Source: Aliarcobacter cryaerophilus ATCC 43158 (GTDB lineage Bacteria; Campylobacterota; Campylobacteria; Campylobacterales; Arcobacteraceae). From it: a DNA stretch of 64,000 nt. Numbering within the stretch: the first letter of the stretch is position 1; each line of letters starts with the position of its first letter. The notes under the pieces are model-generated. The model was given only the letters and a program-made list of their open reading frames with translations. It ran no database searches and had not been told where the DNA came from. The stretch covers positions 558,001 to 622,000 of the forward strand of contig NZ_CP032823.1 in the NCBI RefSeq assembly GCF_003660105.1, written 5' to 3'. Shown one piece after another: positions 16,202-26,317 of this stretch. Position numbers and translations under genes: made by a program.

Positions 16202-16525
16202 ATGAAAAAATTTGTTGCTATTTTAGCTATTTTTACTGCTTTATTTTTAGGGGCTATAGATCTTCAAACTGCTTCAAAAAGTGAGTTAATGCAAATTAAG
16301 GGAGTAGGAGATAAAAAAGCTGATGCTATTATTGAGTATAGAAAAACAAACACTATAAACTCTGCTGAGGACTTAAAAAACATAAAAGGGTTTGGCGATA
16401 CTATTATAGACAATGTAAAAAAGGATATAAAAGAAAAGCCTATTTCATCTAAAAAAGATGAAAAATCAAAGAGTGATGACATAAAAGATTCAAAGAAAAC
16501 TAAAAACTCTAAATCTGACAATTAA
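16202..16525 (+). CDS. ComEA-like secreted helix-hairpin-helix DNA-binding protein
   Basis: 107 residues. A signal peptide (about 1-18, ending LGAID) is followed by paired helix-hairpin-helix motifs, LMQIKGVGDKKADAIIEYR and LKNIKGFGDTIIDNV (about 30-75), as in ComEA and related uptake proteins. The last 30 residues are a lysine/serine/aspartate-rich, probably disordered tail. ComEA-type proteins bind incoming DNA in the periplasm during natural transformation. It stands alone between the rRNA operon and an unrelated operon, with its own promoter, a strong ribosome-binding site and a hairpin after it. Competence is inferred from family only. Confidence 0.85.
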   Translation: MKKFVAILAIFTALFLGAIDLQTASKSELMQIKGVGDKKADAIIEYRKTNTINSAEDLKNIKGFGDTIIDNVKKDIKEKPISSKKDEKSKSDDIKDSKKTKNSKSDN

Positions 16526-16635: not shown

Positions 16636-16678
16636 ATGAATAAATATTCATATTTAATTCATTAAAAATTCATATTCA
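16636..16678 (+). promoter_or_regulatory. Tandem ATTCAT repeats, candidate OmpR-family operator
   Basis: ATTCAT occurs at 16646, 16657 and 16668, exactly 11 bp apart, and an inverted copy ATGAAT at 16636 makes a 16-bp palindrome with the first. Direct repeats at one helical turn are what OmpR/PhoB-type regulators bind. The array lies 35-67 bp before the start of an operon whose eighth gene encodes such a regulator, so autoregulation is an attractive inference. Confidence 0.6.
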
Positions 16679-16712: not shown

Positions 16713-17795
16713 TTGATATTACATGCTTATAAAGCACTGATTGCAAATAAATTAAAAACATTTTTAATCATAATAAGTCTTATATTTTCTATTGTTTCAA
16801 TATTTTTAATTAGTTCTATTTCAAATGGTGTTATCTCTATGTACTCTTCAATGTTAAAAAGTGATGGAGATATAATAGTTACTCAAGCTAAAATTTCTGA
16901 TACATTTTTTTCAAATGTTGATATAAATTTGATTAAAGAAATAGAATCTTTAAAAAATGTAAAAGAAGCTGGGGCAATTATAGTTGGTGCAAGTCCTGTT
17001 GAGAAACTTCCTATTGTAGCTATTTATGGAGCAAGTCAAAATAGATTTAAAAATTATCAATTAGAAATAGGAAACTATCCTTTTGATAATCAGGCTATTG
17101 TTGGTGAATCAATTTTTAAGCAACTTGAAAATAAAAAAGAAGTTCAAATTGGAAATAAAACTTTTAAAATTTCTGGTGTTTTTAAAAGTGAAATAGGATT
17201 TGAAAATGGTGGAATAGTTTTAAATATAGTAGATGCTGGAGAGATTTTCAATAAATCTGCTTCAATTATTTTAGTAAATGCAGCTTTGAATTCAGATATT
17301 GAAGAGATTATAAAAGAGATAAAAACTTTATCAAAAGAGATTGATGTTAAATCTACACAAAATTTTGTGGATAATTATAATCAATTTAAAATAATAAAAA
17401 CATCATCAAATGTTATTTCATTTATAGCTTTTTTTCTTGGATTACTTGGAATTGTAAGCCTTATGAGTATAACTGTAAATCAAAGAAAAAGTGAATTTGG
17501 AATTAAAAGAGCTTTAGGTATAAAAACTTATAAAATTGTTTATTCAATAATAATTGAAAGCTTTTTTATTGGATTATTTAGTTTTATTTGTGCATTTATT
17601 TTTTCAAATATTGTTCTATTTTTTATAAAAAATGTAAAAACTTTACAAGGGTATGTAAATGGTGAAATTAGTTTTGATTTAACTATTTATGTTTTTATAA
17701 CATCTATTTTAATGGTAATTATTGGTTCAATAATACCTGCACTAAATGCAGCAAAAACAGATCCAGTTCTTTTAATCCAAGGAAATAAAATATGA
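16713..17795 (+). CDS. ABC transporter permease, FtsX/MacB type
   Basis: About 360 residues. A membrane helix near the N-terminus (LKTFLIIISLIFSIVSIFLI), a periplasmic MacB-PCD-like region of roughly 200 residues, then three C-terminal helices with the FtsX-like ISFIAFFLGLLGIVSLMSITVNQRKSEFGIKRALG segment: the four-TM FtsX/LolC/MacB topology. I place the start at the TTG at 16713 because AAAGGAG sits 7 bp upstream; the longer frame from TTG 16689 has no ribosome-binding site. It overlaps the ATPase gene by 4 bp (ATGA). Such pumps move lipoproteins, peptides or act mechanically on envelope enzymes; the substrate is unknown. Confidence 0.88.
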   Translation: MILHAYKALIANKLKTFLIIISLIFSIVSIFLISSISNGVISMYSSMLKSDGDIIVTQAKISDTFFSNVDINLIKEIESLKNVKEAGAIIVGASPVEKLPIVAIYGASQNRFKNYQLEIGNYPFDNQAIVGESIFKQLENKKEVQIGNKTFKISGVFKSEIGFENGGIVLNIVDAGEIFNKSASIILVNAALNSDIEEIIKEIKTLSKEIDVKSTQNFVDNYNQFKIIKTSSNVISFIAFFLGLLGIVSLMSITVNQRKSEFGIKRALGIKTYKIVYSIIIESFFIGLFSFICAFIFSNIVLFFIKNVKTLQGYVNGEISFDLTIYVFITSILMVIIGSIIPALNAAKTDPVLLIQGNKI

Positions 17796-18415
17796 TAAAA
17801 ATTAAAAACTTAAGTCATTATTATAATAATGACAAAGCTTTGGAAAATATAAATTTAGAGATAAATAAAGGTGATTTTATATGTTTAGTTGGGGAAAGTG
17901 GAAGTGGAAAATCTACTCTTTTATCAATAATCTCAACTCTATTAAAACCAACGAAAGGTGAACTATTTTTTGAAGATTTAAATTATAAACATATTAAAGA
18001 TATTGATGATTTTAGAAGAATAAATATTGGTTTTATCTTTCAATTTCACTATTTAATAAACTATTTAACAGTTATAGAAAATATAAAACTAGCAAATGAA
18101 AAATCAACTACTGATGAAATTTATAACTTACTAAAAATTTTAGGAATAGATAATTTAGCAAATAAATATCCAAATGAAATTTCAGGAGGACAAAGACAAA
18201 GAGTTGCAATTGCTAGGGCTTTAATAAATAAACCAAAAGTAATTATTGCCGATGAACCAACTGGAAACTTAGATTCAAAAAACTCTTTAAATGTTTTTGA
18301 AATATTTAAAAAATTAAGTCAAGAGAAAGTTACTGTAATAGTAGCAACTCACGATAAAAATTTAGCACAAATTGCAAATAAAATTTATGAGGTAAAAGAT
18401 GGAAAAATCAATTAA
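17792..18415 (+). CDS. ABC transporter ATP-binding protein, LolD/MacB type
   Basis: 207 residues with Walker A GESGSGKST, Q-loop FIFQFHYL, signature SGGQRQRVAIARAL, Walker B VIIADEPTGNLD and the switch histidine in ATHD. The PTGNLDS segment is typical of the LolD/FtsE/MacB clade. It overlaps the permease by 4 bp and forms the transporter with it. Its last 17 bp overlap the start of the heme-copper-oxidase-like gene, indicating translational coupling to that unrelated membrane protein. Confidence 0.93.
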   Translation: MIKIKNLSHYYNNDKALENINLEINKGDFICLVGESGSGKSTLLSIISTLLKPTKGELFFEDLNYKHIKDIDDFRRINIGFIFQFHYLINYLTVIENIKLANEKSTTDEIYNLLKILGIDNLANKYPNEISGGQRQRVAIARALINKPKVIIADEPTGNLDSKNSLNVFEIFKKLSQEKVTVIVATHDKNLAQIANKIYEVKDGKIN

Positions 18416-19970
18416 TTTTGAGAATTTTATAAACAAGAATTTTAAAATATCTATTGTGTTTTTTGCAATTGGACTATTTTTTGGAATTGGATATTCATTA
18501 AATTTAATAGGATTTATTATTGATTCACAAACATTAAATCCTGCAAATTTAAGAGCTGTACATATTAGTTTGATGCTTTATGGATTTGTTCCTTTAATGC
18601 TTTCATATTTACCTTTTTTACTTATTAATAAAGAGGTTGGTATCTGTAAAGAAGGATTAAAATATCTAAATATTTACACTCAAATTTGGTATATATTTCT
18701 AATTTTTATGATATTTTCACTACTTTTAGGAAAAAATAGAGGTTTAGCATTTTATGATTTTGCATATGAATTAAATTTTTTACTAGCATTTGCAGGATTA
18801 TTTTATATTCTAGCTTTATATAAATTTATAAAACTTTATAAAGTTATTCCTTTGTGGATAAAAGTATGTTTGAAAATAGTAGTTATTGCTCCTATTGCCC
18901 TTTTGATTTTAATGAATCCAACTATTGGTCAAGTTGAAAGTACAGTAAGTGGTCCTCATGGAGATAACACTTTAGGAATGAGTTTGGCTTTAATTCCTAT
19001 TTACTATTTAATCATAAAACTTTTAAATATTACAGAATTTAAAGCTAGATGGAATATTTTATGGATTATTCCAACACTCTTTTATCTTGGAACAGTATTG
19101 TATAGAATATTTTTTGAACCTTTAACATACAATCAAGAGTTGTTTGCTCAATATTTAACTCTTTTATATATTCCACTTTTATACAGATGGTATAAAGATA
19201 GCAATATTTTAGCTCCTGCTAAAAAAGCTCTTCTAATTTCAATATTAGCTTTCTTATTTGTTGATATTGAAGGAAATATTTTATTTATTCCTGAAATTAG
19301 ATGGTTATTTCATAGAAATGATTTAATAGTAGCACATGCACATGTTGCAATGGGAATTGGAGTGTTTTTTATGGTTATAGCTATGTTTATAAATCATATA
19401 AAGGAGCTTCACGTAGCAAAATATCTAAATATATATTTAGTTGGAATTTTAGGAATATTTTTTTCTCTTAGTATTTCAGGTTTTTCACAAGCTGGATTTA
19501 TTTCAATATCTACTTATAATTTATGGATATTTAGAACAATATTTGGTCTTGTTGCTTTTGGATTTATATTTGCTTTTATCAAATTAAAAACATCTTATTC
19601 AAACTTAAGTTTTTATAATTTAATGGGTGTTTTAAGTGATGGATTAGGTGGAGTTTTTTTAATACTACTTGCTAGCTTTTTATATCCAATTTTAGGATTT
19701 AGTTTTAGTGGAATTTATGAATATGTTGTTTTTACTTTTGTAAGTATGACGGGAGTTATTCACTACTTTGCTTTAAAATACGAAGCTTATGAAACTATTC
19801 TAACAAAAATTAGTTTAGTTATTAGAATATTTGTTAGTTCTATGTTTTTTGCTTTGTATGCTTCAGGAAAACTTGGAATTGAAGCTCTTTTAATTTCACT
19901 TTTTGACCTAACATTTATTTTCGTTTACTTAATCTTTTTTCAATCAAAGGAGTATTTATGCAAAGATTAA
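18399..19970 (+). CDS. Heme-copper oxidase subunit I-like membrane protein lacking part of the copper site
   Basis: 523 residues with about 12 membrane helices. The pattern follows cbb3/NOR subunit I: His55 in RAVHISLMLYGF (helix II, low-spin heme ligand), His187 in GPHGDNTLGMSLALIPIYYL (matches cbb3 helix VI WYGHNAVGF, a copper ligand) and His313/His315 in HRNDLIVAHAHVAMG (helix X, matches TDWTIGHVHSGALG). The helix VII region (about 215-260) contains no histidine, so the two other copper/iron ligands are absent. Heme binding is plausible, O2 or NO reduction is not. No other oxidase subunit is nearby. It overlaps both neighbours (17 and 13 bp). Homology is inferred from motif alignment by eye. 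Confidence 0.7.
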   Translation: MEKSINFENFINKNFKISIVFFAIGLFFGIGYSLNLIGFIIDSQTLNPANLRAVHISLMLYGFVPLMLSYLPFLLINKEVGICKEGLKYLNIYTQIWYIFLIFMIFSLLLGKNRGLAFYDFAYELNFLLAFAGLFYILALYKFIKLYKVIPLWIKVCLKIVVIAPIALLILMNPTIGQVESTVSGPHGDNTLGMSLALIPIYYLIIKLLNITEFKARWNILWIIPTLFYLGTVLYRIFFEPLTYNQELFAQYLTLLYIPLLYRWYKDSNILAPAKKALLISILAFLFVDIEGNILFIPEIRWLFHRNDLIVAHAHVAMGIGVFFMVIAMFINHIKELHVAKYLNIYLVGILGIFFSLSISGFSQAGFISISTYNLWIFRTIFGLVAFGFIFAFIKLKTSYSNLSFYNLMGVLSDGLGGVFLILLASFLYPILGFSFSGIYEYVVFTFVSMTGVIHYFALKYEAYETILTKISLVIRIFVSSMFFALYASGKLGIEALLISLFDLTFIFVYLIFFQSKEYLCKD

Positions 19971-20923
19971 TATTAATCTTTTTTATAGCTAGCGAGTTGT
20001 GCTATTATCTACTTATAGCACAAACAGGAATTGTTGAATATTTTTCATCAGATTTATTTTTAATTGCACCACTTCCTATTGGAGGAGTTATTGGTTCTTT
20101 ATTAATTTCATATATAAAATTAGATAATAAAATAACACTATTTTTAATAGCTCAATTAATTGTAAGTTTTTTATATCCAAATTATAATTTTTTAACACTT
20201 TTCTTTTTAGGTTTTATAGTTGGTAGTATCGCTCCCATGGTAATAAATGAAATTAAAAAAACTTCACTTATAGAACTTGGTTTTGCTTTAAGTTTATCTT
20301 ATGTTACAGGAACTATTTTATTTAATTATGAAGTATCTCAAAGAGAAATTATTGCTGTTGTACTTACAACTATTACTTTATTTTGTTCTTTATTTTTACC
20401 TAAAAATAAAGAAGAACAAAGTTTAAATAAAGTAAATCACTCTTTAATCATAATGGTTTTATGGGTATTTTTAGATTCTTCTTTATTTGAATCTCTTTCA
20501 AGAGATTTAGCTGTTTCTATTTGGAGAGGTGGTTTTACTTTTGAAATAGCTTTATTTCATATTATTGGTTTAGTTTGTGCTTTATACTTTAAAATTGAGA
20601 AAAATCAAAATGAGTTGTTTATATTGATACTTTTTGCTCTTTCATATCTTTTATATTTTTTAAGAGAGGGGTTTATATTATCAATGATTTATCCATTTGT
20701 AATATCTTATTACAATGTTGTTATTCTTCAATCAATTAGAAATAAAGATTTTAGAACTATCTCATTTTTTATGATATTAATTGGATGGATGGCTTCTGGT
20801 TCTGGACTTTTTGTAGCGTTAACAAATATGATATTTATTGTTCCAATTGTAATTTTATTAGCAATATTTAAAGTACTTAGCAAAGAATATCCACTAAATA
20901 ATAAGGAGATTAAATATGTTTAA
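19958..20923 (+). CDS. Uncharacterised polytopic membrane protein (about 10 TM)
   Basis: 321 residues, almost entirely hydrophobic, with about ten predicted helices in two groups of five separated by a hydrophilic stretch near residues 148-157 (LPKNKEEQSLNKVN). The GGVIGSLLISY and FLGFIVGSIAPM segments resemble MFS-type helices, but no transporter signature is recognisable. AAAGGAG precedes its ATG within the upstream gene; it overlaps the oxidase-like gene by 13 bp and the next gene by 8 bp. Function unknown; strict linkage to the oxidase-like protein suggests a partner or transporter for it. Confidence 0.75.
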   Translation: MQRLILIFFIASELCYYLLIAQTGIVEYFSSDLFLIAPLPIGGVIGSLLISYIKLDNKITLFLIAQLIVSFLYPNYNFLTLFFLGFIVGSIAPMVINEIKKTSLIELGFALSLSYVTGTILFNYEVSQREIIAVVLTTITLFCSLFLPKNKEEQSLNKVNHSLIIMVLWVFLDSSLFESLSRDLAVSIWRGGFTFEIALFHIIGLVCALYFKIEKNQNELFILILFALSYLLYFLREGFILSMIYPFVISYYNVVILQSIRNKDFRTISFFMILIGWMASGSGLFVALTNMIFIVPIVILLAIFKVLSKEYPLNNKEIKYV

Positions 20924-21440
20924 AAAATTATTTTTTACTTTGGCTTTAGGTCTTAGTTTATATGCAAGTAATTTATCAGTATCAAATAGTGCTATTATGG
21001 CTCAAACTGAAGTTTTTGGAGATAGTCAAATTACTCCAATAACAAGGGATATAAAAGGTGAGCTAACTATTGAAAATAGTTTAGAATCAATAAGAGGTAA
21101 TATTTATTTTAAAACAATTACTCTTATTAGTGATAAAAAAGATAGAGATGAGAATATGTATAAACTTTTAAGAGTTGATAAATTTGAAACAATATCTTTT
21201 GATATAAAAAATATCATAAAAAATGAAATTAACTATGACATAAGTGGTGTTTTAACATTAAATGGTATTTCTAAAGATATTATTGTTAAAAGTGATATAA
21301 GTGAAGAGAAGAGTAATATCTTACTTAATGGAAAATTTTCTTTTAATCTAACAGATTTTAATTTAGAACCACCTTCAATGCTATTTTTTAAAGTTAGAAA
21401 TCAAATAGATATTACTTACAAAATTTATTTGAAAAGATAA
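20916..21440 (+). CDS. YceI-like periplasmic protein
   Basis: 174 residues with a signal peptide (about 1-18, ending SLYAS). The rest is beta-rich and follows the YceI lipocalin-like pattern: an N-terminal strand with FGDSQITPITRDIKGELTI, the central VDKFETISFDIKNI, GVLTLNGISKDIIV (typical LTLHGVTKPV-like segment) and a C-terminal FKVRNQIDITYKIYLKR strand. YceI proteins bind isoprenoids or quinone-like lipids in the periplasm. AAGGAGATT precedes the ATG. In this operon it could carry a lipophilic ligand or cofactor. Confidence 0.75.
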   Translation: MFKKLFFTLALGLSLYASNLSVSNSAIMAQTEVFGDSQITPITRDIKGELTIENSLESIRGNIYFKTITLISDKKDRDENMYKLLRVDKFETISFDIKNIIKNEINYDISGVLTLNGISKDIIVKSDISEEKSNILLNGKFSFNLTDFNLEPPSMLFFKVRNQIDITYKIYLKR

Positions 21441-21443
21441 GAA

Positions 21444-21899
21444 ATGATAAAAAAAGTTCTATTATTGGTAATTATTACAAACTTTATGTTTGCGGGGAAT
21501 TTAAAACTTGGTGCTAAAGTAAATAATTTTTCACTTGTAGATCAATTTGATGAAATCCATACTATTACTAGTGATATTGAAACTATAATTGTAACTTTCC
21601 AAAAAGAGACTCTTATGATGGTAAATGATTTTTTATCATCGAAGAGCTCACTATTTTTAAAAGAGCATCACGCAATTTTTATAAATAATCTCTCATCAAC
21701 TCCAACAATTATTACAAAAATGTTTATAATTCCTAAATTAAGAGATTATAAATATAGTATTTTATTAATTTATGATGAAAGTAATACAAGATTTGCAAAA
21801 CAAAACGATAAAATAACTACTTATTCTTTTGAAAATGGAGTAGTAAAAGATATAAAATTTATATCTTCTGCAAATGAACTAAGTAATTTATTAAAATGA
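21444..21899 (+). CDS. Secreted thioredoxin-fold-like protein without cysteines
   Basis: 151 residues with a signal peptide (1-17, ending FAG). The mature part starts LKLGAKVNNFSLVDQFDEIHTI, as in AhpC/TSA/SCO-type proteins, followed by a strand IIVTFQKE where the redox Cys would lie, and a later strand ILLIYDES. There is not one cysteine in the protein, so it cannot do thiol redox or SCO-like copper transfer through cysteines. It starts 3 bp after the YceI gene and overlaps the next gene by 4 bp (ATGA). Fold assignment is by pattern only; role unknown. Confidence 0.65.
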   Translation: MIKKVLLLVIITNFMFAGNLKLGAKVNNFSLVDQFDEIHTITSDIETIIVTFQKETLMMVNDFLSSKSSLFLKEHHAIFINNLSSTPTIITKMFIIPKLRDYKYSILLIYDESNTRFAKQNDKITTYSFENGVVKDIKFISSANELSNLLK

Positions 21900-22627
21900 A
21901 TTTAGAAAATATTTTTCAAACTATAGAAATAAATGTTGAAAATAAAAAATTAAATGATTTGAGAATTCTTCATTTAAGTGATTTACACATAAATAAAAAA
22001 ACTTCAAATGAAAAAATTATTAACTTAGTAGAATTTTGCAACACTTTAGATTTTGATTTTTGTGTAATAACTGGGGACATAATAGATACAAAAGTAAAAT
22101 TTATAAAAGAACAACTTTGTGTTTTAAATAAGTTAAAAAATAGAGTTTTTTACATAAGTGGAAATCATGACCTATTTTATGGATTAGAAGATTTAAAAAA
22201 AGAGTTACAAAATTTTATTTTTATGGATAATAAAACATTTATGATTAATCATAAAAATGAGAATATTTATATTTCTGGACTTCCAGATAGATTTTCAAAA
22301 TTTTTTAAAATCAAAAGAGAAGATGAAAAAATAAAAGATTATTTAAAACAATCGCCTTCTATTTTTATTTCTCATCAACCAAAAGATTATAAAATTGCTA
22401 CAAAATCAAATGCCTCTCTTTTTCTATGTGGACACACTCACGGTGGGCAAATTTATCCATTTCACTATTTTGTAAAGCTTGTTCAACCCTTTTTAGCTGG
22501 ACTTTTTTACAGAAAAAATACAGCTATTTATGTAAACAAAGGAGTTGGAACTTGGGGTATAAATTTTAGATATAAAGCAAATGCAGAGATAACTATATTG
22601 AAATTAATTTCAAAAACAGTAGAATAG
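21896..22627 (+). CDS. Metallophosphoesterase, YaeI/YkuE-like
   Basis: 243 residues with all calcineurin-type motifs: LSDLHI (Asp29, His31), GDIIDT (Asp61), GNHD (Asn90, His91), an SHQP segment and GHTHGGQIYP near 179-188. The GHTHGGQ form is typical of the YaeI/YkuE group, some of which act on lipid phosphates. No signal peptide or membrane helix is clear. It overlaps the previous gene by 4 bp and ends 4 bp before the response regulator. Substrate unknown. Confidence 0.88.
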   Translation: MNLENIFQTIEINVENKKLNDLRILHLSDLHINKKTSNEKIINLVEFCNTLDFDFCVITGDIIDTKVKFIKEQLCVLNKLKNRVFYISGNHDLFYGLEDLKKELQNFIFMDNKTFMINHKNENIYISGLPDRFSKFFKIKREDEKIKDYLKQSPSIFISHQPKDYKIATKSNASLFLCGHTHGGQIYPFHYFVKLVQPFLAGLFYRKNTAIYVNKGVGTWGINFRYKANAEITILKLISKTVE

Positions 22628-22631
22628 CTTT

Positions 22632-23300
22632 ATGAAGATATTAATAATAGAAGATGACTTAAAAATAATAAACTTTTTGAAAAAAGGTTTAGAAGAAGAG
22701 TGTTATGTAGTTGATTTTGCTACAAATGGAGATGAAGGTCTTTATCTTGCTAGTGTAAATGAATATGACCTAATCTTACTTGATATAATGATTCCAATTA
22801 AAGATGGAATAGAAGTTTGTAAAAGCTTAAGAGGTTCAAATATTCAAACACCAATTATTATGTTAACAGCAAAAGATTCAATTGAAGATAAAGTAAAAGG
22901 TTTGGATATTGGAGCAAATGATTATTTAGCGAAACCTTTTTCTTTTGCTGAATTATTAGCAAGAATTAGAGTTCAACTAAGAACTATAAACTCTTCATCA
23001 ACAAAACTTTCAATAGCAGATTTAGAAGTTGATTTATTAAACAAAACAGCAGTTAGAGCTAATAAAAATATAACTCTAACTGCAAAAGAGTTTTCACTTT
23101 TAGAATATTTAATTAAAAATAAAAATAGAGTTTTAAGTGAAACAACAATAAATGAGGCTTTATCATCTTTTGAAGATTCAAATATAAGTAATATCGTAAA
23201 TGTATATATTTATAGATTAAGAAATAAAATAGATAAAGATTTCGAAAAGAAACTTATTAAAACCATAAGAGGAATAGGATTTAAAATTAGTGAAGATTAA
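22632..23300 (+). CDS. OmpR/PhoB-family response regulator
   Basis: 222 residues: receiver domain with acidic pair Glu7-Asp8-Asp9, phospho-acceptor Asp51 in LILLDIMIP, Thr in LTAKD and the conserved Lys in AKPF; then a winged-helix DNA-binding domain (about 125-220) with YIYRLRNKID and a terminal TIRGIGFKI. It is the partner of the following kinase, whose GTG start lies inside it. The 11-bp-spaced repeats before the operon are a plausible binding site. Confidence 0.95.
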   Translation: MKILIIEDDLKIINFLKKGLEEECYVVDFATNGDEGLYLASVNEYDLILLDIMIPIKDGIEVCKSLRGSNIQTPIIMLTAKDSIEDKVKGLDIGANDYLAKPFSFAELLARIRVQLRTINSSSTKLSIADLEVDLLNKTAVRANKNITLTAKEFSLLEYLIKNKNRVLSETTINEALSSFEDSNISNIVNVYIYRLRNKIDKDFEKKLIKTIRGIGFKISED

Positions 23301-24666
23301 TTTATCAATAAAAAAAAGGCTTTTAGTCTATCATTTTTTCATACAAATTATTGTTTTGGTAATTTTTTCATTCTCTTTGTATAAAGCTGTAGAAATTTCA
23401 ACTATAGATAAACTTGAAGCAACTCTAAAAGTTATAATCCTTGATATTACGGATGATTTACAAGAAAAAGATAAAATTACAGAAACTCTTTTAGATGAAG
23501 AAAAAGAGTATAAATATGAGCCACTTTTTATTAGAATTTTAAATGATAAAAACTTTGAAAAAATAATTCAAACAGATAATTTTCCAAAAGATATTATAAA
23601 AAATGAAAAATATTTATCTAATTTAAAACTAAATACTATAAATTTTGAAGAACAAAATAACTATTTTATTAGTAGAATAAAGATTAATTTTCATGGAGAA
23701 CAAACTGTAATTATAGAAGCTATTACAACAAAAGATGTTATAACAACAACTCTAGAAAATCTCCTTTATATATTGTATTTTATTCTTCCAATAATCTTAG
23801 TTTTTGCAGTTATTGGTGGAAATTTTATAATTTATAAATCATTTTTTCCTTTTCAAAATATTTTAGAAGAGTTAAAACAGATAAATGCAAATGATTTATC
23901 ATCAAGATTAAAAATAAGTGATACTAAAGATGAAATTTCTGAATTAGTAAATGAAATAAACAATCTTTTAAGTAGACTTGAAAACTCATTTGAAAAAATT
24001 TCTCAGTTTAGTTCAGATGCTTCTCATGAATTAAAAACTCCACTTACTATAATAAAAGGCGAATTAGAAATTTCATTAAGAAAAGATAGAAATATAGATG
24101 AATATAAAGATACTATAAATAGATCTTTGTGCGAACTTTCAGGAATAGAGCAGACAATAAATGATCTGTTGTTTTTAGCTAAAAATGAAAATGAGATTAT
24201 TACAGATAAAAAAGAGTTTTTTTATTTAGATGAAATTGTAGATGAATCAATAAATGAACTAAAAAATTTTGCAAAACTTCATAAAGTTCAGATAGTTTTT
24301 GAAGTTCAAGATAATTTAGAGTTTTTTGGTTTTCCAAATTTATTAAAAATTGCAATAAAAAATGTTTTGAAAAATGCTATTCAATTTAGTTTTGAAAATT
24401 CAAAAGTGATAGTGAAAATATTTAAAAAAGATAATTTATTAAATGTTTCAATTAAAGATTTTGGAATAGGAATTCCATTAAATGAACAAGAAAAAATATT
24501 TGATAAATTTTATAGAACAGATAAAAGTAGAAATAAAAACTCTGGAGGAACTGGACTTGGTATGTCAATTTTAAAGAAAATAGTAGATATTCACAAAGGA
24601 GAAATAACTATAAAAAGTGAAGAGAATAAAGAAACGACAATAACTTTATCTTTTAATTCTAAATAA
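23290..24666 (+). CDS. Sensor histidine kinase, EnvZ/QseC type
   Basis: 458 residues, GTG start overlapping the regulator by 11 bp. Two membrane helices (about 12-32 and 157-182) enclose a periplasmic sensor of about 125 residues; a HAMP region, a dimerisation helix with His246 in SSDASHELKTPL, and a HATPase with N-box (IKNVLKNAIQFS), G1 (DFGIGIP), F-box and G2 (SGGTGLGMSI) follow. The signal is unknown; linkage to an envelope ABC pump and a YceI protein suggests sensing of the envelope, a metal or a lipophilic ligand. It is the last gene of the run. Confidence 0.94.
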   Translation: MKINLSIKKRLLVYHFFIQIIVLVIFSFSLYKAVEISTIDKLEATLKVIILDITDDLQEKDKITETLLDEEKEYKYEPLFIRILNDKNFEKIIQTDNFPKDIIKNEKYLSNLKLNTINFEEQNNYFISRIKINFHGEQTVIIEAITTKDVITTTLENLLYILYFILPIILVFAVIGGNFIIYKSFFPFQNILEELKQINANDLSSRLKISDTKDEISELVNEINNLLSRLENSFEKISQFSSDASHELKTPLTIIKGELEISLRKDRNIDEYKDTINRSLCELSGIEQTINDLLFLAKNENEIITDKKEFFYLDEIVDESINELKNFAKLHKVQIVFEVQDNLEFFGFPNLLKIAIKNVLKNAIQFSFENSKVIVKIFKKDNLLNVSIKDFGIGIPLNEQEKIFDKFYRTDKSRNKNSGGTGLGMSILKKIVDIHKGEITIKSEENKETTITLSFNSK

Positions 24667-24731: not shown

Positions 24732-24748
24732 TTGCAACCAAGTTGCAA
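24732..24748 (+). promoter_or_regulatory. Candidate metalloregulator operator upstream of znuC
   Basis: TTGCAACCAAGTTGCAA: perfect 7-bp inverted repeat with a 3-bp spacer, ending 12 bp before the znuC-like ATG and overlapping the likely leader. A Zur/Fur-type repressor would fit the genes behind it, but the binding protein is inferred only. Confidence 0.5.
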
Positions 24749-24760
24749 ATAAAGGTTAAT

Positions 24761-25501
24761 ATGAATTTAATACAAATAGAGAACTTATCTTACTCGTATT
24801 CTAATACAAAAGCTTTAGATAACATAAATCTTGAAATTAAAAGTGATGATTTTTTAGCTATTATTGGACCAAATGGTGGTGGAAAATCTACACTTTTTAA
24901 ACTTATATTAGAGTTACTTCCTCTTCAAAGTGGAAAATTAATAAAAAATATAAAAAATAGTCAAGTTGGTTATGTCCCACAAAATACAAATTTAAATATT
25001 GATTTTCCAATTACTTCTTTGGAAGTAGTTTTAATGGGTCATATAAGTTCTAAAAAAAGATTATTTGGTTATTCAAAAGATGAAATTTCTTGTGCATTGG
25101 AGTCTTTAAATCAAGTTGGGATGAAAGATTTTGCAAATAAAAAAATAGGTGATTTAAGTGGTGGTCAGCGACAAAGAGTCTTCATTGCAAGGGCACTTTG
25201 CTCAAATCCAAAAATTATGCTTTTGGATGAACCAACGGCAAGTATTGATGTAAAAGGGCAGCAAGAGATTTATGAACTTTTAAGAGAGTTAAATAAAACT
25301 ATTTGTATTGTTGTTGTAAGTCATGATTTATCAATTCTTTTAAATTATGCAAAAAATGTAGCTCATATTAATAGAGGTTTGGTTTATCACAGTCTTGCTG
25401 AGGTTCAAAAAAATGTTACTTTAGCTGATGATCATTTGTGTGAGGTTGAACTTTTATCAGCTTTAGGTAAAACACAAATTTGTTGTAACCATGTACATTA
25501 A
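24761..25501 (+). CDS. znuC: Metal ABC transporter ATP-binding protein (ZnuC-like)
   Basis: About 246 residues. Walker A GPNGGGKST, Q-loop VPQNT, signature LSGGQRQRVFIARAL, Walker B IMLLDEPTASID and switch His in VVSHD are intact. Overall pattern and the NLDIDFPITSLEVVLMGH-type region match the zinc/manganese (ZnuC/MntB) group. The C-terminus ends ICCNHVH, a Cys/His cluster that could bind metal. I use the ATG at 24761 with AAAGGT upstream; the TTG at 24743 would lie inside the inverted repeat. ZnuB follows after 15 bp. No periplasmic binding protein (ZnuA) is adjacent. Zn versus Mn or Fe cannot be settled from sequence. Confidence 0.87.
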   Translation: MNLIQIENLSYSYSNTKALDNINLEIKSDDFLAIIGPNGGGKSTLFKLILELLPLQSGKLIKNIKNSQVGYVPQNTNLNIDFPITSLEVVLMGHISSKKRLFGYSKDEISCALESLNQVGMKDFANKKIGDLSGGQRQRVFIARALCSNPKIMLLDEPTASIDVKGQQEIYELLRELNKTICIVVVSHDLSILLNYAKNVAHINRGLVYHSLAEVQKNVTLADDHLCEVELLSALGKTQICCNHVH

Positions 25502-25516
25502 AAAGGTAAAAATATA

Positions 25517-26317
25517 ATGTTTGAAATTTTACAATATGATTTTATTCAAAATGCTTTGATAGCTGGAGTTTTAATCTCAATAGCAGCTGGAATAATTGGA
25601 ACTTTGGTTGTGGTAAATAAGATTACTTTTCTTACAGGTGGAATAGCTCATAGTGCTTATGGAGGAATAGGAATAGCGATATTTTTAGGAATCCCAGTTT
25701 TATTTGGAGCAACTATTTTTGCAGTTCTAACTGCAATTTTAATCGCTATTATTACTTTGAAAAATAGAAGCCGAATAGATGCAATAATAGGTATGATGTG
25801 GGCAAGTGGTATGGCAATTGGAATTATATTTGTAGATTTAACTCCAGGATACAATGTAGATTTAATGAGTTATTTATTTGGAAGTATCATTGCTGTTTCA
25901 AGCGAAGATATTATTTATATGACGCTTTTAGATATTTTTATTATTGCAATTGTTGTATATTTTTATAAAGAGATTTTATCTGTATCTTATGATAGTGAAT
26001 TTGCAAGTTTACGAGGTATAAATGTAAAATTCTTTTATACACTAATTCTTATATTATCTGCTTTATGTGTAGTTGCTGCTATAAAAGCTGTAGGACTTAT
26101 TTTGGTAATTGCACTTCTTACAATTCCAACATATTTAGCTGAAACTTTTGCTACAAAATTATCTTCAATGATGATTATTAGCTCAATTTTAGCTACAATG
26201 TTTACAATATCTGGTCTTGTAGTTTCATATCTTTATGATATAAGTTCAGGGGCAAGTATAATAATGGTCGCAGTTGTTGCTTTAGGAGTTGTAAAGCTAA
26301 TAAAATATAAAAAATAA
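25517..26317 (+). CDS. znuB: Metal ABC transporter permease (ZnuB-like)
   Basis: 266 residues with about eight membrane helices. The N-terminal segment LIAGVLISIAAGIIGTLVVVNKITFLTGGIAHSAYGGIGIAIFLGIP is the hallmark of the ZnuB/MntC-type ABC-3 permease family, and the C-terminal half has the expected VGLILVIALLTIPTYLA. It forms the membrane channel with the upstream ATPase. Its stop is followed 22 bp later by the S1-domain gene, so the operon may continue. Confidence 0.92.
   Translation: MFEILQYDFIQNALIAGVLISIAAGIIGTLVVVNKITFLTGGIAHSAYGGIGIAIFLGIPVLFGATIFAVLTAILIAIITLKNRSRIDAIIGMMWASGMAIGIIFVDLTPGYNVDLMSYLFGSIIAVSSEDIIYMTLLDIFIIAIVVYFYKEILSVSYDSEFASLRGINVKFFYTLILILSALCVVAAIKAVGLILVIALLTIPTYLAETFATKLSSMMIISSILATMFTISGLVVSYLYDISSGASIIMVAVVALGVVKLIKYKK

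What the first reader, a model, noticed from the sequence alone, without database searches (positions are those of the whole stretch)
16713..24666. Nine-gene run joining an envelope ABC pump, a degenerate oxidase-like protein and a two-component system
Seen directly: nine co-directional genes with overlaps or gaps of a few bp. Gene order is FtsX-type permease, LolD-like ATPase, oxidase-like membrane protein, ~10-TM protein, YceI-like protein, cysteine-free Trx-like protein, metallophosphoesterase, response regulator, kinase. Known: each family alone is common, but the YceI family binds lipids/quinones and FtsX/LolD-type pumps act on envelope substrates. Inference: two members look like redox proteins stripped of catalytic residues, so the system may sense or handle a heme, quinone or lipid ligand at the membrane, with the kinase as its reporter. 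I know of no described system with this composition.
Basis: partly seen in the sequence, partly recalled or inferred. Interest (0 to 1): 0.72.

Follow-up and report, generated by a model that had tools for sequence, protein, structure and literature searches.

The report
Conserved lipocalin and heme-protein envelope operon
Many Arcobacter-like bacteria and their relatives carry the same tightly packed set of cell-envelope genes, including a relative of respiratory oxidases that has lost its copper site but kept its heme sites, under what looks like its own dedicated switch; it probably maintains membrane lipids or quinones, but its function has yet to be tested.

Summary
The nine-gene run is real and inherited as a unit. 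Its order recurs in nearly all of 40 Arcobacteraceae loci, and the oxidase-like and MFS-like genes co-occur in 49 of 49 carriers among 104 genomes. In other Campylobacterota the core persists in shuffled orders. A TTCAT tandem repeat with 11-bp spacing precedes the operon in 39 of 40 upstream regions. Its first three units match exactly once in the 2.1-Mb genome, so the two-component system looks like a dedicated switch.

Corrections: the oxidase-like protein keeps all three aligned heme-ligand histidines (87 of 87 sequences). Only the copper site is gone, with invariant Asp189 and Arg236 there. The ~10-TM protein has an MFS fold. The kinase pair is mostly lost or different outside Arcobacteraceae, so it is not core.

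The hydrolase slot holds either a YaeI/LpxG-like phosphodiesterase or an enzyme nearest NAPE phospholipase D, never both (65 and 12 of 88 loci; 11 have neither). Best reading: a stress-switched system for handling or redox repair of envelope lipids or quinones. It works like the YceI-cytochrome b561 pair and resembles FetABCDEF in layout, but is a member of neither. Function is inferred, not shown.

The parts
16636..16673 (+). Conserved tandem repeat ATGAA-N6-TTCAT-N6-TTCAT-N6-TTCAT (11-bp spacing), putative response-regulator box, 77 bases before the permease TTG start
16713..17795 (+). FtsX/MacB-type permease (ORF list starts at TTG 16689; RBS favours TTG 16713)
17792..18415 (+). LolD-like ABC ATPase
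   Evidence: Walker A and signature residues invariant or nearly so
18399..19970 (+). relative of heme-copper-oxidase subunit I without the CuB site but with all three aligned heme-ligand histidines
19958..20923 (+). MFS-fold membrane protein (the '~10-TM protein')
20916..21440 (+). YceI-family lipocalin, predicted periplasmic
21444..21899 (+). thioredoxin-fold protein without cysteines, with an N-terminal hydrophobic stretch (probably secreted)
21896..22627 (+). calcineurin-like phosphodiesterase (nearest YaeI and LpxG), Asp/Asn/His of the metal site conserved
22632..23300 (+). OmpR/PhoB-type response regulator (best NCBIfam matches: heavy-metal response regulators and HprR, below cut-off)
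23290..24666 (+). HAMP sensor histidine kinase (best NCBIfam match: heavy-metal sensor kinases, below cut-off)

Best explanation
A stress-switched envelope machine that moves and redox-maintains a membrane lipid or isoprenoid quinone. Shown by sequence: a conserved, co-inherited gene set; a conserved promoter box unique to it; heme ligands kept and the copper site replaced; a lipid-type hydrolase slot filled by either of two unrelated enzyme folds. Inferred: the kinase senses an envelope disturbance, and the regulator binds the tandem TTCAT box and raises its own operon. The HCO-derived b-heme protein passes electrons, probably from menaquinol, to a lipid or quinone ligand. The YceI lipocalin carries that ligand through the periplasm. 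The FtsX/LolD-type ABC pump does the mechanical work of loading or unloading it at the inner membrane. The cysteine-less Trx-fold protein acts as a docking or assembly factor. The MFS-like protein and the cytoplasmic phosphodiesterase take in and break down the phosphodiester-linked product.
For: Linkage: 40-locus order; 49 of 49 co-occurrence of oxidase-like and MFS-like genes in 104 genomes; core genes within 6.5 kb and on one strand in 81-87 of 88 loci, with orders shuffled outside Arcobacteraceae. Lipid chemistry: YceI family with solved relatives E. coli YceI and a C. jejuni polyisoprenoid-binding protein; permease nearest MacB, YtrF, LolF and LolE; hydrolase slot YaeI/LpxG-like or nearest NAPE-PLD (4qn9, E 7e-40), 65 and 12 of 88 loci with no overlap and 11 with neither; MBL motif HxHxDH intact in 12 of 12. 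Redox: H55, H313 and H315 align with CcoN heme ligands by two MAFFT modes and by hhalign and are invariant in 87 of 87; a cytochrome b561 gene joins the end of the operon in 6 loci (L048, L066, L069, L070, L074, L117; Pfam checked for L048 and L117). Precedent: YceI lipocalin plus cytochrome b561 protect against lipid peroxyl radicals (PMC9113575; abstract and passages seen). Switch: box in 39 of 40 upstream regions; three of its four units match exactly once in the genome, reversed control 0.
Against: No ligand, electron donor or phenotype is known. The cytochromes b561 near the operon are not close to E. coli YceJ (best E 5e-4), so the parallel with LcoA is by Pfam family and setting only. 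The kinase and regulator resemble heavy-metal systems, which would fit metal handling instead. Trx fold matches include FetE of an iron system. trx is not detected in 27 of 88 loci and neither hydrolase in 11 of 88, some of them cut contigs. Kinship of the oxidase-like protein to the oxidases is remote (below the Pfam cut-off; not listed by the genome-wide PF00115 search; local hhalign probability 33%). In 22 of 87 sequences a His stands at 235, so one copper-ligand position may survive there. No structure of it was predicted, so site geometry rests on alignment. MPE and MBL carriers are phylogenetically clustered, so their exclusion is not 88 independent events; in 5 of 12 MBL loci the gene is on the opposite strand.
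Confidence: 0.38

Rival explanations
1. Fet-like redox-assisted metal system: the ABC pump, membrane redox protein, Trx-fold protein and periplasmic beta-protein support uptake or safe handling of iron or copper, with the kinase sensing metal.
For: Similar layout to FetABCDEF (a polytopic redox-type protein, an ABC transporter, Trx proteins; PMC10783030 passages); Trx fold aligned to FetE 8t4c at 18% identity, Z 9.5; RR/HK best matches are heavy-metal subfamilies.
Against: No Ftr1-like permease or P19 family among Pfam matches of the nine proteins; DUF2318 (FetA; PF10080) matches 12 of 104 family genomes at E<=0.001, only 1 over the cut-off and that one with stops, none in this genome; no CxxC in 23 Trx rows; the kinase sensor has no conserved His, Met or Cys; lipid-type hydrolases and a lipocalin are unexplained.
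Confidence: 0.15
2. Synthesis, remodelling or export of a special envelope lipid (no redox repair): the phosphodiesterase or NAPE-PLD-like enzyme makes a lipid product, the MFS-like protein flips it, and the ABC pump and lipocalin deliver it to the outer membrane.
For: Two exchangeable lipid-type hydrolases; LolCDE/MacB-type pump; lipocalin; MFS matches include EfpA (one entry complexed with lipids) and MFSD2A, although MFS rows score alike, Z 22-24.5.
Against: Leaves the 87-of-87 invariant heme ligands of the oxidase-like protein and the recruited cytochrome b561 without a role unless the lipid is oxidised.
Confidence: 0.22
3. HrtBA/HssRS-like heme tolerance: the permease and ATPase extrude heme, the two-component system senses heme, and the oxidase-like protein is a heme buffer.
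For: FtsX-type permease plus ATPase plus TCS in one operon resembles HssRS-HrtBA (recalled); b-heme protein predicted.
Against: The TCS is mostly not conserved with the pump outside Arcobacteraceae; lipocalin, hydrolase and MFS protein are unexplained. HrtB did not appear among the permease's solved-structure matches at E<=0.001, which does not exclude kinship.
Confidence: 0.1
4. Neighbouring independent genes with no joint function.
For: Each family is common on its own.
Against: 49 of 49 co-occurrence, recurrent overlaps between the genes, shuffled but intact sets in other families, a single conserved upstream box.
Confidence: 0.02

Closest known systems
BcnA-LcoA (YceI lipocalin plus cytochrome b561) lipid peroxyl radical detoxification, Burkholderia cenocepacia (PMC9113575)
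   Same: YceI-family lipocalin beside a membrane b-heme protein; linked genes in many Gram-negatives
   Different: Here the core b-heme protein is an oxidase relative, not cytochrome b561; it adds an ABC pump, MFS-like protein, Trx-fold protein, lipid-type hydrolase and a TCS; a PsrA counterpart was not looked for
FetMP-FetABCDEF iron uptake system of Campylobacter jejuni (PMC10783030)
   Same: Operon with an ABC pump, polytopic redox-type membrane protein, Trx-fold proteins and a periplasmic protein
   Different: No FetM, FetP or FetA (DUF2318) family in the set; Trx without CxxC; one permease, not two; lipocalin and phosphodiesterase instead
cbb3 oxidase subunit I (CcoN) and the heme-copper oxidase superfamily
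   Same: H55, H313, H315 and the nearby H305 align with CcoN H61, H357, H359, H349 of the same genome; ligand roles recalled
   Different: D189 in place of the TM6 copper-ligand His and no HH pair in TM7 (R236 invariant; His at 235 in 22 of 87); no CcoO/CcoP genes beside it
MacB / LolCDE / HrtBA type mechanotransmission ABC transporters
   Same: FtsX-type permease with MacB_PCD-like periplasmic domain and LolD-like ATPase
   Different: Below the curated cut-off of every NCBIfam match listed (the best 25 of 202 shown for the ATPase); no MacA or TolC partner in the set

Membership tests
Heme-copper oxidase superfamily, subunit I | Recognisable COX1 core | tested here: inconclusive
   Pfam COX1 7.8e-6 but 25.4 bits against a cut-off of 34.8; not listed by the genome-wide PF00115 search at E<=10; profile hits only cbb3 CcoN among solved structures, 3.7e-4; hhalign to CcoN global 1e-5 (probability 62%), local 4e-4 (33%)
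Heme-copper oxidase superfamily, subunit I | Heme-ligand histidines in TM2 and TM10 | tested here: met
   H55, H313, H315 aligned with CcoN and NorB, 87 of 87 invariant
Heme-copper oxidase superfamily, subunit I | Three CuB/FeB histidines (oxygen or NO reduction) | tested here: not met
   TM6 His aligned to Asp189, 87 of 87; no HH pair in TM7 (236 is Arg in 87 of 87; 235 is Tyr in 49 and His in 22); TM7 register uncertain
BcnA-LcoA detoxification pair | YceI lipocalin | tested here: met
   Pfam YceI 6e-15, over the cut-off
BcnA-LcoA detoxification pair | Cytochrome b561 as linked partner | tested here: not met
   No PF01292 match among the nine proteins; a cytochrome b561 gene lies beside the set in a minority of loci and is not close to YceJ
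FetMP-FetABCDEF | FetA DUF2318 protein | tested here: not met
   12 of 104 genomes at E<=0.001, 1 over the cut-off, none in this genome
FetMP-FetABCDEF | Trx proteins with CxxC | tested here: not met
   0 of 23 rows
LolCDE lipoprotein exporter | lolCE / LolD equivalog scores | tested here: not met
   39.7 of 362 bits and 202 of 308 bits
MFS transporters (the ~10-TM protein) | MFS fold | tested here: met
   Predicted model pLDDT 91, Foldseek 4.5e-5, Z 24.5 over 298 residues, rmsd 3.2; no Pfam family matches by sequence
HssRS-HrtBA heme tolerance | Heme-inducible operon | not testable with these tools
   needs expression data
Copper/silver CusRS-type TCS | Metal-binding His/Met in the periplasmic sensor (rule recalled) | tested here: not met
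   In residues 26-150 of the window kinase one His (H135, His in 15 of 41 rows), no Met or Cys; no conserved one

The most novel reading that the evidence does not exclude
The oxidase-like protein is a heme-copper oxidase turned peroxidase. It kept both b-hemes but exchanged the copper site for invariant His187, Asp189 and Arg236, a set reminiscent of the distal His and Arg of heme peroxidases (recalled). In this reading it uses menaquinol electrons to reduce lipid hydroperoxides that the ABC pump and lipocalin bring to it, with the hydrolase and MFS-like protein recycling the product. This would be a membrane lipid-repair complex with no counterpart that I know of.
Probability: 0.12. Interest if true: 0.88.

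Novelty: new variant of a known kind. Interest (0 to 1): 0.64.

Why it matters
How Gram-negative bacteria repair or recycle damaged envelope lipids and quinones is largely open. This set recurs across Campylobacterota, has a conserved box of its own, and contains a heme-copper oxidase relative under strong constraint after losing its copper site. It gives a compact, testable system for ATP-driven lipid or quinone handling, and a natural example of a respiratory core put to another use.

Tried and rejected
Ideas rejected. (a) Link to NO respiration: NorB is present in 25 of 49 carriers and 34 of 55 non-carriers (counted by hand from the lists), so there is no positive association. (b) Plasmid spread: no match to the oxidase-like or MFS-like protein in 72,556 plasmid records at E 0.01. 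(c) Housekeeping LpxG role for the phosphodiesterase: the set is patchy (49 of 104) and this genome has a second homologue, 40% identical, at 1979493-1980200. (d) Phage defence: PADLOC hits fall only on the ATPase, phosphoesterase and kinase and look generic. (e) Kinship of the MFS-like and oxidase-like proteins: hhalign probability 2.5%. (f) Generic sigma-70 scan: 65 sites found against 67.4 expected, uninformative.

Limits. Phyla other than Campylobacterota could not be searched with the profile. The genome-contig scan used two family-specific peptides, so remote relatives elsewhere are not excluded. HrtB was absent from the permease's solved-structure matches; that does not exclude kinship. 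In one search, 67 of 397 genomes matched, but 7 are weak partial matches (E 5e-5 to 8e-4), six of them in frames of about 500 residues as for CcoN, and one more (G444) is in pieces. In one search, one of the 34 matches of 298 (G294) is weak and partial. For one search, I dropped 21 of 109 loci as re-fetched or very short contigs, by my own list; a few near-duplicates may remain, and in L103 the counted MPE is an upstream paralogue because the contig cuts the set's own copy. The box pattern was written from the same upstream sequences in which it was then counted; the shuffles keep base composition only.
Full report
Observation. The nine genes are present as described. Six of eight junctions overlap by 4-17 bases and two are gaps of 3-4 bases. 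A 187-base gap precedes the operon (ComEA-like gene ends at 16525) and a 76-base gap follows it (an ABC ATPase and ABC-3 permease pair from 24743; families, the name znu is recalled). HMM searches confirm the families.

Linkage. The oxidase-like gene occurs in 49 of 104 family genomes and the MFS-like gene in 50 of 104. All 49 are shared. The extra genome (G098, 85% complete) lacks the oxidase-like gene and has MFS-like and Trx-like genes about 2 kb apart, with no pump gene in the 17 kb fetched. In the 40 loci fetched, the order permease-ATPase-oxidase-like-MFS-YceI-Trx-MPE-RR-HK is kept with few exceptions: L054 has its TCS upstream, L050 starts inside the oxidase-like gene, five loci lack a trx hit, and in L041 the MFS-like gene is in two pieces. 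No flanking family recurs in more than 15 of 88 loci. In the phylum sample, 60 of 397 genomes carry the gene after I set aside 7 weak partial matches of 67; one of the 60 (G444) has it in pieces. Of 52 loci with record titles, 49 bear names of Campylobacterota groups (name-to-phylum reading recalled) and three say only 'bacterium' or 'Proteobacteria'.

Core and accessories. In 88 loci (109 minus 21 re-fetched or very short ones) permease, ATPase, oxidase-like, MFS-like and YceI genes are found within 6.5 kb of the oxidase-like gene in 82, 82, 87, 85 and 81, each time with a same-strand copy; trx in 61. Order is shuffled in Sulfurovum- and Sulfurimonas-type loci, which makes joint function more likely than passive inheritance. 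The hydrolase slot holds the metallophosphoesterase in 65 loci or an MBL-fold hydrolase in 12, never both; 11 have neither, some cut by contig ends. The MBL protein of L082 is nearest NAPE phospholipase D among solved structures (E 7e-40; Pfam Lactamase_B_2 in the three tested), and the metal motif is intact in 12 of 12. In 5 of these 12 loci it lies on the opposite strand. Of the 18 loci from other families fetched, only L079 and L080 have an RR-HK pair on the same strand right after the set. In Sulfurospirillum (L122) the kinase gene is a 228-residue HAMP-HisKA protein without an ATPase domain.

Oxidase-like protein. Pfam COX1 matches below its cut-off, the genome-wide PF00115 search listed CcoN and NorB but not this gene, and the family profile finds only cbb3 CcoN among solved structures (3.7e-4). 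So kinship is probable but remote. Aligned with CcoN (L145) and NorB (L146) of the same genome, H55 falls on the TM2 heme ligand and H313/H315 on the TM10 pair (ligand roles recalled). The TM6 copper ligand is Asp189 by two MAFFT modes and by hhalign. The TM7 HH pair is absent. There R236 falls on or next to the second His in the two MAFFT alignments, while hhalign places a gap, so the register is uncertain. H55, H187, D189, R236, E247, H305, H313 and H315 are invariant in 87 of 87 sequences; position 235 is Tyr in 49 and His in 22 (related sequences, not independent). The protein most likely binds two b-hemes but cannot hold a three-His CuB. That is strong constraint after loss of the classic site, not decay.

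Other proteins. The ~10-TM protein has an MFS fold (pLDDT 91; Z 24.5) though Pfam has no family for it. The Trx-like protein has a thioredoxin/peroxiredoxin fold (pLDDT 89, Z 11.1 to 4nmu), no CxxC in 23 rows, and Cys beyond residue 22 in only 2. The permease is nearest MacB, YtrF, LolF and LolE. YceI matches E. coli YceI and a C. jejuni polyisoprenoid-binding protein. The metallophosphoesterase keeps the usual metal-site residues (motif recalled); it had no solved relative at E 0.001.

Switch. Upstream of the permease lies ATGAA-N6-TTCAT-N6-TTCAT-N6-TTCAT, at 16636-16673 here. A strict pattern is found in 29 of 40 upstream regions (the window and 39 loci; L050 lacks the region) and nowhere else in the 704 kb of those sequences (mean 0.0 in 20 base shuffles). 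A looser one is found in 39 of 40, missing only in L054, whose TCS has moved and diverged. The first three units match exactly once in the genome, here, and once more with one mismatch; the reversed control gives 0. Direct repeats at 11-bp spacing are the usual site of OmpR/PhoB regulators (recalled). The box also occurs in the S. arcachonense locus (L079/L113), whose nine genes are of the Arcobacteraceae type, which suggests transfer of the whole unit (inference, no tree made). RR and HK active-site residues tested are invariant in 41 rows, save one Ser for Thr at RR 79. The kinase sensor has conserved Asp/Glu and no conserved His, Met or Cys.

Mechanism. Lipid or quinone handling is the common denominator of pump, lipocalin and both hydrolase types. 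The heme ligands, and the cytochrome b561 gene that extends the operon in six loci, add redox. The nearest tested precedent is BcnA-LcoA in B. cenocepacia, whose mutants show more membrane lipid peroxidation (PMC9113575: abstract and passages). The nearest layout is FetABCDEF (PMC10783030: passages). Neither membership test is passed. I commit to a stress-switched lipid/quinone maintenance machine at 0.38. A lipid-remodelling system without redox (0.22) and a metal system (0.15) are the main rivals.

Literature. Full-text searches (PMC open-licence papers only) showed no paper describing this set. Apart from the two papers named, I saw only listings and abstract starts, and of the 315 papers only 10 were listed, none of which holds 'YceI'.

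Verdict. A real, conserved, probably co-regulated envelope system for which I found no description; components known, combination and the oxidase-derived member new; function inferred.

Noticed in passing
L122:12858-13544: In Sulfurospirillum the operon ends with a 228-residue kinase-like protein with HAMP and HisKA but no ATPase domain; similar short HK matches (144-148 residues) occur in the other Sulfurospirillum-type loci.
   Followed up: partly
G444 (L193:7653-9182): In this Sulfurospirillum-type genome the oxidase-like gene matches in three pieces with two changes of frame (8 stops counted): decay or sequencing error.
   Followed up: partly
L192:4605-8210: G098 keeps MFS-like and Trx-like genes about 2 kb apart without the oxidase-like gene, so these two may act together.
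   Followed up: partly
L048:13688-14353, L117:5916-6680 and L066, L069, L070, L074: A cytochrome b561 gene continues the operon after the kinase; in several other loci DUF1924 (SHP-like, recalled) and DHC-type cytochrome genes lie nearby.
   Followed up: partly
L041: The MFS-like gene is split into two overlapping pieces in this genome (G023).
   Followed up: no
window 24743-26317: znuC/znuB-like metal ABC genes start 76 bases after the kinase; found there only in L035 of the 40 loci fetched, so not part of the unit.
   Followed up: partly
window 16202-16525: Small helix-hairpin-helix (ComEA-like) protein with an N-terminal hydrophobic stretch upstream of the operon; found there only in L035 of the 40 loci fetched.
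   Followed up: partly
G000:C1:1979493-1980200 (L178): Second homologue of the metallophosphoesterase (40% identity) elsewhere in the genome, about 5 kb from one of three further YceI genes (1974293).
   Followed up: no
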